This document shows positions 33,417 to 43,293 of a DNA stretch of 64,000 nt, piece by piece (the first letter of the stretch is position 1; each line of letters opens with the position of its first letter). Position numbers and translations under genes: made by a program. Under the pieces are notes generated by a model that ran no database searches, had not been told where the DNA came from, and saw only the letters and a list, made by a program, of their open reading frames with translations. Origin of the DNA: Brucella pseudintermedia (GTDB taxonomy: Bacteria > Pseudomonadota > Alphaproteobacteria > Rhizobiales > Rhizobiaceae); assembly GCF_008932435.1 (NCBI RefSeq), contig NZ_WBWE01000011.1, positions 1-64,000 on the forward strand, in the 5' to 3' direction.

Positions 33417-33417
33417 C

Positions 33418-33442
33418 AAAAAAGCGCCGGAAAACCGGCGCT
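33418..33442 (-). terminator. Terminator of the small membrane-protein unit
   Basis: Stem AGCGCCGG / CCGGCGCT with a 4-base loop. The run of A before it is a U-run only on the minus strand, which marks it as the end of a leftward transcript, 26 bases past the 34-codon gene. This independently supports a minus-strand gene here. Confidence 0.75.
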
Positions 33443-33467
33443 CGGACTGCTGAAAAGACTATGCAGA

Positions 33468-33572
33468 TCAGCGATAATGGTCGTTATAATGCTTGTCGTA
33501 CCAAAGCCAGCCGAAAGCAGCGGCCGCAACGATCAACGGGAAAACATACCAGAAGAACACTTCAGAGGTCAT
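33468..33572 (-). CDS. 34-residue single-span membrane protein
   Basis: Short gene read directly from the sequence: MTSEVFFWYVFPLIVAAAAF then GWLWYDKHYNDHYR. One hydrophobic span (about residues 5-24) is followed by an aromatic and charged His/Tyr-rich tail. The start is preceded by GGAG at a good distance and overlaps the stop of the upstream small gene (ATGA). A minus-strand terminator follows. Size and layout resemble accessory subunits of membrane complexes, but no family was recognised and no function is claimed. Confidence 0.7.
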   Translation of the reverse strand: MTSEVFFWYVFPLIVAAAAFGWLWYDKHYNDHYR

Positions 33573-33932
33573 GGCTCCAATCTCCCTAGAACGCGCCTTG
33601 CCGCTAAATGTAAGCCAATCGCCGGCAAAATCCAAGCTGTGACGCCGAGAAAAGACACAAGCAGTCCGCTTCCCGGTGTGAAATTGAAGGTCTTGCCCAG
33701 AACTCCGACAGCGAGAAACGCCGTGGAAAGGCGATCAAGATTGTTCGCCAGCAGCTTGGTTCGTTCGTTATCACTACAGTTGCAAATTCGTCAGGCCGTG
33801 GCGAAAAGAGTGATTTTCGAGTACCGGAGCGCAGCGTACTTAAAGGTACGTGAGCACCGGAACGCAGACAAATTGCTCTTTGCAGCCCGGCATCACGAAG
33901 AATGCAACTGTAGTGTTATGTATCAAGCTCAT
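33569..33932 (-). pseudogene. Small membrane-protein gene split by a palindromic element
   Basis: Reading leftward, GGGAGGGCGAT precedes ATG at 33932, giving MSLIHN before the frame enters a 144-bp insert (33772-33915) flanked by TTAT on both sides. Deleting the insert and one TTAT restores 71 codons: MSLIHNERTKLLANNL, RLSTAFLAVGVLGKTF, two likely membrane spans, ending ARRVLGRLEP. The restored stop overlaps the ATG of the 34-residue gene. As it stands the frame ends inside the insert after 30 codons. The left part (33569-33767) keeps coding character. Unknown family. Confidence 0.8.
33772..33915. mobile_element. 144-bp palindromic insertion element (MITE-like, Bru-RS-like)
   Basis: Terminal 13 bases are perfect inverted repeats (CACTACAGTTGCA). 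The two halves remain alignable as an imperfect hairpin through the centre near 33841. It is flanked by a 4-bp direct repeat TTAT (33768-33771 and 33916-33919). It has no coding capacity of its own. Long palindromic elements of about 100-150 bp (Bru-RS1/RS2) are known in Brucella; identity with them is suspected, not shown. Confidence 0.75.
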
Positions 33933-33990
33933 ATCGCCCTCCCGATCACTTCTTATCCCGGAGCCTAATGGACCGCCATCCGCATCAAAC

Positions 33991-34017
33991 AAAAAGCGCC
34001 GGTTTCCCGACGCTTTT
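33991..34017 (-). terminator. Terminator of asd
   Basis: AAAAAGCG...CGCTTTT imperfect hairpin, 25 bases past the asd stop. A-run and T-run flank the stem. Confidence 0.65.
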
Positions 34018-34041
34018 CAATATCAGTGCTGGGAAGGCTGA

Positions 34042-35076
34042 TCAGGCGGCAAGCGCCTTCGGCTTGATGAGGCCGCGCGCAACCAGCAATTCAGCGATCT
34101 GGATCGTGTTGAGAGCAGCGCCCTTGCGCAGATTGTCGGAAACAACCCACATGGCAAGACCGTTTTCGACCGTGATATCCTCGCGGATGCGGCTGATATA
34201 AGTCGCGTCTTCACCAGCGGATTCATAAGGCGTGATGTAGCCGCCGTTTTCGTGCTTGTCGACAACCTGGCAGCCCGGGGCCTCGCGCAGGATTTCGCGT
34301 GCTTCTTCCGGCGTGATCGGGTTTTCGAACTCGATATTCACCGCTTCGGAATGGCCGATGAAAACCGGAACGCGAACCGCGGTAGCCGTTAGCTTGATCT
34401 TCGGATCGAGCATCTTCTTGGTTTCGGCCACCATCTTCCATTCTTCCTTGGTGTAGCCGTCTTCCATGAAGACATCGATATGCGGGATGACGTTGAACGC
34501 GATGCGCTTGGTAAACTTTTTCGCCGTAACCGGATCGGCTACGAAAACAGCGCGCGACTGCTCAAACAGTTCGTCCATGCCTTCCTTGCCCGCGCCCGAG
34601 ACCGACTGATAGGTCGCGACAACGACGCGCTTGATCTTGGCAACGTCGTGCAGCGGCTTCAAAGCCACCACGAGCTGAGCGGTCGAGCAGTTCGGATTGG
34701 CGATGATGTTCTTCTTGCGGAAACCCTCGACCGCGTCGGGGTTCACCTCGGGCACGATCAGCGGCACTTCCGCGTCATAACGCCAGGCCGAGGAATTATC
34801 GATGACGACGCAGCCCTGCTTGCCGATCTTCGGCGACCATTCCTTGGAAATTTCGCCGCCGGCAGACATCAGGCAGATATCCGTATCGGAAAAATCATAC
34901 GTATCGAGCGCCTTGACCTTCAGCGTCCGGTCGCCATAGGACACTTCAGTGCCCTGGCTGCGACGCGATGCAAGCGCGACCACTTCGTCCGCCGGAAAGC
35001 CGCGTTCCTCGAGGATATTGAGCATTTCGCGCCCGACATTTCCGGTGGCGCCGACAACTGCAACCTTGAAACCCAT
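34042..35076 (-). CDS. asd: Aspartate-semialdehyde dehydrogenase
   Basis: 344-residue Asd, which reduces aspartyl-phosphate for lysine, threonine, methionine and diaminopimelate synthesis. N-terminal NADP fold FKVAVVGATGNVGREML; catalytic Cys in IIANPNCSTAQLVVAL near residue 131; His in FIGHSEAVNIEFE. Start at 35076 has AGGAGACG directly upstream; the open frame extends further without support. Divergent from an MHS permease. Confidence 0.96.
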   Translation of the reverse strand: MGFKVAVVGATGNVGREMLNILEERGFPADEVVALASRRSQGTEVSYGDRTLKVKALDTYDFSDTDICLMSAGGEISKEWSPKIGKQGCVVIDNSSAWRYDAEVPLIVPEVNPDAVEGFRKKNIIANPNCSTAQLVVALKPLHDVAKIKRVVVATYQSVSGAGKEGMDELFEQSRAVFVADPVTAKKFTKRIAFNVIPHIDVFMEDGYTKEEWKMVAETKKMLDPKIKLTATAVRVPVFIGHSEAVNIEFENPITPEEAREILREAPGCQVVDKHENGGYITPYESAGEDATYISRIREDITVENGLAMWVVSDNLRKGAALNTIQIAELLVARGLIKPKALAA

Positions 35077-43218: not shown

Positions 43219-43293
43219 GCGGGTGTAGCTCAGGGGTAGAGCACAACCTTGCCAAGGTTGGGGTCGAGGGTTCGAATCCCTTCGCCCGCTCCA
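43219..43293 (+). tRNA. tRNA-Gly (GCC)
   Basis: 75 bases with CCA encoded. Acceptor arm GCGGGTG pairs with CGCCCGC before the discriminator T. D-loop AGCTCAGGGGTAGAGC; anticodon stem ACCTT/AAGGT with loop TGCCA giving anticodon GCC; T-arm GAGGGTTCGAATCCCTT. All arms pair. It lies at the junction between conserved genes and an accessory stretch, a classic integration target. Confidence 0.97.

What the first reader, a model, noticed from the sequence alone, without database searches (positions are those of the whole stretch)
33569..33932. Palindromic element inserted into a small membrane-protein gene, with a clean target duplication
The 144-bp element at 33772-33915 has 13-base perfect terminal inverted repeats and is flanked by TTAT on both sides. 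Removing it with one TTAT gives a continuous 71-codon frame with a strong ribosome site (GGGAGGG) and a stop that overlaps the next gene start. Three independent features (frame, ribosome site, coupling) are restored at once, which is hard to explain by chance. It dates the element as mobile in this lineage and identifies an otherwise invisible gene.
Basis: seen in the sequence. Interest (0 to 1): 0.8.

Follow-up and report, generated by a model that had tools for sequence, protein, structure and literature searches.

The report
Mobile hairpin interrupting a small gene
A 144-letter, gene-less jumping hairpin really has landed inside a small gene, and its relatives show that the same hairpin body travels with different end sequences, as if it can ride on more than one transposon enzyme.

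Summary
Confirmed. Window 33772-33915 is a non-autonomous inverted-repeat element (MITE) flanked by TTAT twice. Five same-genus genomes carry the locus without it: in the alignment each lacks exactly the element plus 4 bp and has an uninterrupted 71-codon gene. Other copies lie at 58 independent sites with a 4-bp duplication at a YTAR-like target (16 of 58 exact, 3.6 expected). The insert truncates the window's gene.

The less ordinary part is the anatomy. The whole element folds as one hairpin (z about -10). Its middle 106 bp are 92% identical to a second family in the same genomes, whose outer 19 bp at each end differ (8 of 19 identical) and whose duplication is 3 bp, TNA (9 of 28, 2.7 expected). 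One body thus carries at least two end types, probably served by two transposases. The body is found elsewhere in Alphaproteobacteria (24 of 289 genomes, 12 of them strongly), with compensatory changes and conserved unpaired positions. No transposase with this element's ends was found in the part searched. The role of the body is unknown; Bru-RS repeats of Brucella are the nearest named kin, not compared by sequence.

The parts
33772..33915 (+). 144-bp non-autonomous inverted-repeat element (family A)
   Evidence: perfect 13-bp ends; one hairpin; absent from 5 relatives; further copies in the genus
33772..33790 (+). left end module, about 19 bp, family-A specific
   Evidence: 8 of 19 identical to family B, against 97 of 106 in the body
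33897..33915 (-). right end module, about 19 bp, family-A specific
   Evidence: 8 of 19 identical to family B
33791..33896 (+). 106-bp hairpin body shared with elements that have other ends
   Evidence: covariance-model hit 33789-33897, 124 bits (the window is one of the sequences the model was built from)
33829..33856 (+). apical part of the body with the conserved signature GCGSAGYGTAC-loop-GTACRTGAGCA
   Evidence: alignment A2 and conservation by zone
33768..33771 (.). left copy of the target-site duplication TTAT
   Evidence: 4-bp duplication supported over 58 insertions
33916..33919 (.). right copy of the target-site duplication TTAT
   Evidence: single copy at the site in G016, G144 and G146
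33920..33932 (-). 5' piece of the interrupted small gene (ATG at 33930-33932)
   Evidence: translation of this side alone; intact homologues in relatives
33569..33767 (-). 3' piece of the interrupted small gene
   Evidence: tblastn match of residues 5-70 to 33575-33772; piece read alone
33468..33572 (-). downstream 34-codon gene whose start overlaps the stop of the interrupted gene
   Evidence: 6 of 35 genus genomes

Best explanation
The element is a MITE: a short DNA transposon with no gene of its own, moved in trans by a transposase that recognises its ends and makes a 4-bp staggered cut at YTAR-like sites (duplication shown, transposase inferred). It lies in the first codons of a 71-codon gene and has broken it (shown). 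It probably arrived after the split from the nearest sampled relative (inferred). The element has two layers. The ends, about 19 bp each, go with one duplication length and so with one transposase. The body is a 106-bp hairpin that another family carries behind different ends (shown by comparison). Most likely mechanism for the layering (inferred, not tested): long palindromes are copied arm to arm by template switching and lose their tips by slippage, so a change of end in one arm is mirrored in the other, and a body can pass from one end type to another. The ends are inferred to be of IS5 type.
For: Natural empty sites in 5 relatives. Uninterrupted gene there. 4-bp duplication: exact left=right in 16 of 58 independent insertions, shuffled mean 3.62, maximum 10; positions -4/+1 and -1/+4 agree in 36 and 45 of 58, against about 22 by shuffling; the inner TA is too constant to inform. 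Copies with both ends came from 19 of 35 genus genomes (rows); exact YTAR+end in 14 of 35. Body 97 of 106 identical between families A and B, ends 8 of 19 each. Family B duplication 3 bp: 9 of 28, shuffled mean 2.74, p=0.0003. Six orthologous sites hold different lengths: 110 against 142-143 bp at four, 110 against 199 at one, 53 against 143 at one; 100-bp flanks 83-98% identical, except one right flank at 70%. An IS5-family (PF13340) locus in G136 has one end matching family B over 15 nt.
Against: No transposase-bearing element with family-A ends was found: none among 30 loci fetched of 94 PF13340 matches in 15 of 35 genomes, nor around the solitary ends inspected; other transposase families were not searched. 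Two longer end pairs in G119 (604 bp in L144, 1261 bp in L146) showed no transposase-like frame by eye. So the driver is unidentified, and IS5 rests on target type and end look-alikes. Only 16 of 58 duplications are still exact. For family B only one end of one IS was seen, and that locus is followed by what looks like a second insertion. The 19-bp boundary was set by eye. The arm-copying step was not tested.
Confidence: 0.9

Rival explanations
1. The relatives lost the element by exact deletion, so the window shows the ancestral state.
For: Changes of length inside these hairpins are common.
Against: The nearest genome by identity, G147 (93%), and four more distant ones all lack exactly the element plus 4 bp, so several separate exact losses would be needed unless the window branches outside all five (no tree was built). 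The window's 3' piece is still open over 66 residues, as expected of a recent break. The shorter copies seen have lost tips and kept their ends.
Confidence: 0.02
2. It is a Bru-RS element as described in Brucella, that is, already known in every respect.
For: Same genus in the wide sense; palindromic; the body length of 106 bp is close to the 103 and 106 bp given for Bru-RS1 and Bru-RS2 (passage of PMC10800456).
Against: Full length here is 144 bp with 19-bp ends and a 4-bp duplication. No Bru-RS sequence was at hand for comparison. Three smaller genomes of the genus (G128, G135, G150; species unknown) have no body match.
Confidence: 0.3
3. The shared body is a functional RNA or protein-binding hairpin, and the transposon ends are secondary.
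For: 19 of 28 pairs show at least one double change. Identity over 23 genomes of other genera is 0.92 at the apex and 0.88 at its unpaired positions, against 0.55 in the outer arm and 0.49 in the tip loop. G-U cells exceed A-C cells, 23 to 10, in pairs predicted on both strands.
Against: Sequences were retrieved by similarity to this body, so its conservation is partly ascertainment. Palindrome correction can mimic covariation. No Rfam family matches. The 110-bp copies lack part of the apex and the 53-bp copies lack the body, yet keep their ends. Expression and function were not tested.
Confidence: 0.35
4. The element targets stop codons and rebuilds them, and so is benign.
For: 30 of 58 insertions sit on the stop of a frame of at least 60 codons.
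Against: The same test on YTAR sites of the window gives 41 of 89, so there is no clear excess; among the 30 YTAR sites outside ORFs of 150 codons or more it gives 10. The window's own insertion is not at a stop.
Confidence: 0.05

Closest known systems
Bacterial MITEs (definition passages of PMC4133298)
   Same: small, multicopy, no gene, terminal inverted repeats, target duplication
   Different: here the body stays the same while ends and duplication length change between families; the passages describe ends often like those of intact ISs, cores that may hold promoters or host-protein sites, and, for TIMEs, one end type around different cores
Bru-RS1 and Bru-RS2 of Brucella (passages of PMC10800456, PMC2267715, PMC2266754 and PMC3163539; the 1994 original was not read)
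   Same: palindromic repeats of the same genus in the wide sense; body length close to 103-106 bp
   Different: longer here, 144 bp with distinct ends; sequence homology not tested
IS5-family insertion sequences with PF13340
   Same: several in these genomes have ends next to CTAG; one end of a G136 locus matches family B over 15 nt
   Different: no IS with CACTACAG ends was found in the part searched; the element has no transposase
RIME (Rhizobium intergenic mosaic elements; search listing only, the likeness is recalled)
   Same: repeats of Rhizobiales; a similar-looking hairpin, by recall, sits in or beside the tip of L122, L165 and L166
   Different: no sequence comparison was made

Membership tests
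MITE | short, without a transposase gene | tested here: met
   144 bp; the frames that cross it run on from outside it or are short; no domain search was made on them
MITE | terminal inverted repeats | tested here: met
   13 bp perfect; 42 exact YTAR+end matches in 35 genomes against 0 in the reversed control
MITE | target-site duplication and natural empty site | tested here: met
MITE | many copies at unrelated sites | tested here: met
   58 independent sites; in the window's own genome only two full-length copies
MITE | ends shared with a full IS able to move it | tested here: inconclusive
   none for CACTACAG ends among 30 of 94 PF13340 loci and the inspected solitary ends; other transposase families not searched
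IS5-family derived | partner transposase of the IS5 family with the same ends | tested here: inconclusive
   one end for family B; none for family A
IS5-family derived | 4-bp YTAR-like duplication (recalled as typical of an IS5 subgroup) | tested here: met
Bru-RS1/RS2 | sequence homology to the published repeats | not testable with these tools
Bru-RS1/RS2 | length 103-106 bp | tested here: not met
   whole element 144 bp; only the body, 106 bp, would fit
Known Rfam RNA family | match above the gathering score | tested here: not met
   window; 9 loci with the body, E up to 0.5: only tRNA and weak SorX hits, all in L011, away from the body
Rickettsia palindromic elements (recalled) | inserted in frame so that the host gene stays open | tested here: not met
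   the frame ends inside the element

The most novel reading that the evidence does not exclude
An apical hairpin of about 85 nt, with a strongly conserved unpaired signature, is a real functional module of Alphaproteobacteria. It has repeatedly been fitted with the ends of different transposases, so that selection holds the body rather than the ends: a selfish or regulatory hairpin that changes its vehicle, the reverse of what is expected of a MITE.
Probability: 0.35. Interest if true: 0.75.

Novelty: new variant of a known kind. Interest (0 to 1): 0.5.

Why it matters
The insertion is a clean, natural gene disruption by a gene-less element, with the empty site kept in five relatives. The wider point is that one hairpin body carries at least two different sets of ends and two duplication lengths within one genus. 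That makes a testable question of how non-autonomous elements change transposase, and flags a widespread alphaproteobacterial hairpin for which no Rfam match was found.

Tried and rejected
Stop-codon targeting: 30 of 58 insertions, but 41 of 89 YTAR sites of the window pass the same test; not supported. A 2-, 3- or 5-bp duplication for family A: exact matches 2, 0 and 0 of 58; rejected. Autonomous partner for family A: 30 of 94 PF13340 loci in 15 genomes and solitary ends in G000, G016, G119, G147 and a few others; none seen, other transposase families not searched. Family names for the interrupted gene and its neighbour: none above cut-off (one COX8 match below cut-off). Rfam: none for the element. 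Literature: the listings showed no paper describing this element or the body; they cover open-licence PubMed Central only, and the Halling and Bricker 1994 paper was not read. Strand-specific RNA from G-U against A-C counts is only suggestive (23 to 10, related sequences).

Rows dropped: one search examined 78 loci plus the window, dropped 5 without both ends and collapsed 16 shared insertions to leave 58; a few kept rows have a poorly placed right end (for example L171, L174). The loci were chosen mostly from the best listed hits, whose list was itself cut, not from all hits. One search examined 74 loci; 37 lacked family-B ends and the other 37 collapsed to 28. The consensus comparison used 11 family-A and 11 family-B rows picked. 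The pairs were picked starting from short copies found in G119, after an end search of only four genomes; two other orthologous pairs there had equal or nearly equal lengths (143/143 and 141/144).

Full report
What was claimed.

Check of the observation. The sequence is as described. The whole 144 nt fold as a single hairpin of -74.7 kcal/mol on the + strand and -66.9 on the - strand, with z-scores of -10 and -8 against dinucleotide shuffles. Rfam has no match there.

The empty site exists in nature. Searches with 33417-34050 found five same-genus genomes, of 35 searched, with the left flank and no element: G147 (93% over the left flank), G126, G016, G144 and G146. The right flank also matches by BLAST in G147, G126 and G016. 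In the multiple alignment all five have one gap of 148 columns against the window, the element plus 4 bp; in G144 and G146 the right side of that gap is only the short start of the gene. G016, G144 and G146 keep TTAT in single copy; G147 and G126 have changed letters there. All five have an uninterrupted homologue of the small gene. A protein search finds it in 8 of 35 genomes including the window: the five, plus distant homologues in G135 (54% identity) and G128 (43%), none interrupted. In the window only residues 5-70 match in one piece. The next gene, 34 codons, is found in 6 of 35. Neither protein has a Pfam or NCBIfam family above cut-off. In the window the 5' piece ends at a stop within the element and the 3' piece follows an in-frame stop in the element, so the gene is disrupted.

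Who the organism is. Named records with an exact 26-base left end belong mainly to Brucella and Ochrobactrum species, for example B. haematophila, B. daejeonensis, B. grignonensis, B. oryzae, B. thiophenivorans, B. tritici and O. teleogrylli, plus Rhizobium sp. CFBP 8762, unnamed Rhizobiales isolates and a metagenome bin (35 stretches). Matching contig lengths suggest that G119 is B. haematophila and G016 B. daejeonensis (inference).

The element family. Sixty copies were fetched with flanks from the listed hits, with more. Of 78 loci plus the window, 74 had both ends and 58 independent insertions remained; the 74 come from 19 of 35 genus genomes and one other. Left and right 4-mers are identical in 16 of 58 (shuffled mean 3.62, maximum 10). 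The -4/+1 and -1/+4 positions agree in 36 and 45 of 58 against about 22 expected. Lengths 2, 3 and 5 give 2, 0 and 0 exact. The target is mostly YTAR. The exact pattern YTAR+CACTACAGTTGCA occurs 42 times in 14 of 35 genomes, with no reversed control match; the window's own TTAT does not fit YTAR and so is not among them. The wider BLAST hit count, 32 of 35 genomes, includes matches to the body alone. In the window's own genome BLAST finds only two full-length copies, this one and a 154-bp one on contig 43.

Stop codons. Thirty of 58 insertions sit on the stop of a long frame, but so do 41 of 89 YTAR sites of the window. No clear excess, so this looks like a property of YTAR, not targeting.

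Two sets of ends on one body. Many other matches covered only the middle of the element. Aligned with flanks, a second family in the same genomes has ends of the type GAGCCTG/GTGTCTG and full length 140-144 bp. Consensus comparison, 11 rows each: left 19 positions 8 identical, body 97 of 106, right 19 positions 8 identical; the boundary was set by eye. The second family has a 3-bp TNA duplication: 9 of 28 exact, shuffled mean 2.74, p=0.0003. An IS5-family locus (PF13340) in G136 begins with the same GAGCCTGTTCCAAAA as the right end of family B; its far end was not seen, since the frames after it look like a second, IS3-type insertion (recalled type, not domain-searched). Further end types appear around the body in other genera. 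Thirty-one plasmid records, all of other genera, match within positions 13-126 of the element in their best place, and in none does one place cover 80% of it.

Tips come and go. At six orthologous sites the element differs in length: 110 against 142-143 bp at four, 110 against 199 at one, 53 against 143 at one; 100-bp flanks are 83-98% identical except one right flank at 70%. The shorter copy is in G119 each time, but the pairs were found by starting from G119's short copies. Copies of 110 bp also occur in G140 and G141, judged by the spacing of their ends, and a 53-bp copy with a perfect CTAA duplication sits in G137. In L122, L165 and L166 a different hairpin occupies or adjoins the tip.

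How far the body reaches. A covariance model from 58 bodies (its E-values are rough) matches 32 of 35 genus genomes, 24 of 289 drawn from the class and 28 of 299 drawn from the phylum. Of the 24, 12 have a best hit of 70 bits or more and 12 only 33-50 bits. Of the 28, 15 lie in the class with best hits of 78 bits or more; the 13 outside it reach at most 44 bits, so weak hits inside the class may be no better than those outside. Nineteen of 28 pairs have at least one double change. Over 23 genomes (22 genera, all outside the window's), mean identity is 0.55 in the outer arm, 0.77 in the middle stem, 0.92 at the apex, 0.88 at unpaired apical positions and 0.49 in the tip loop. Retrieval by similarity biases these numbers. 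The + strand folds better in consensus (-35.8 against -21.4), and G-U exceeds A-C 23 to 10 in pairs common to both strands: a hint of an RNA role, no more.

Reading. Shown: an insertion with duplication that broke a gene; a family with copies at many sites in the genus; a body shared across end types with different duplication lengths. Inferred: that the insertion is recent, movement in trans by IS5-type transposases, and exchange of ends through hairpin-templated copying. Unknown: the driver of family A and the role of the body.

Place among known things. It meets the definition of a MITE (passages of PMC4133298), except that no partner IS was found in the part searched. Bru-RS repeats are the nearest named kin in this genus (passages), but their sequence could not be compared.

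Noticed in passing
L122, L165, L166 (tips): A different hairpin with arms like GCATAATCC...GGGATTATGC, RIME-like by recall, occupies or adjoins the tip of family-A elements, including the second full-length copy of the window's own genome (contig 43).
   Followed up: partly
L140, L141, L142, L145, L149, L143 (all in G119): At six orthologous sites G119 carries a shorter copy (110 or 53 bp) than a relative, as if hairpin tips were repeatedly lost in that lineage; the pairs were found starting from G119, so the bias is not measured.
   Followed up: partly
L226 from about 1360: An IS5-family locus with a family-B end appears to be split by a second, IS3-like insertion (type recalled, not domain-searched).
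   Followed up: partly
L131 about 384-515: A family-B element sits directly beside what looks like the right end of another copy, suggesting insertion next to an older one.
   Followed up: no
window 33419-33442 and 33991-34014: Two similar 24-nt hairpins (79% alike), possibly terminators, bracket the locus.
   Followed up: no
window 43219-43290: A tRNA gene found by the Rfam scan.
   Followed up: no
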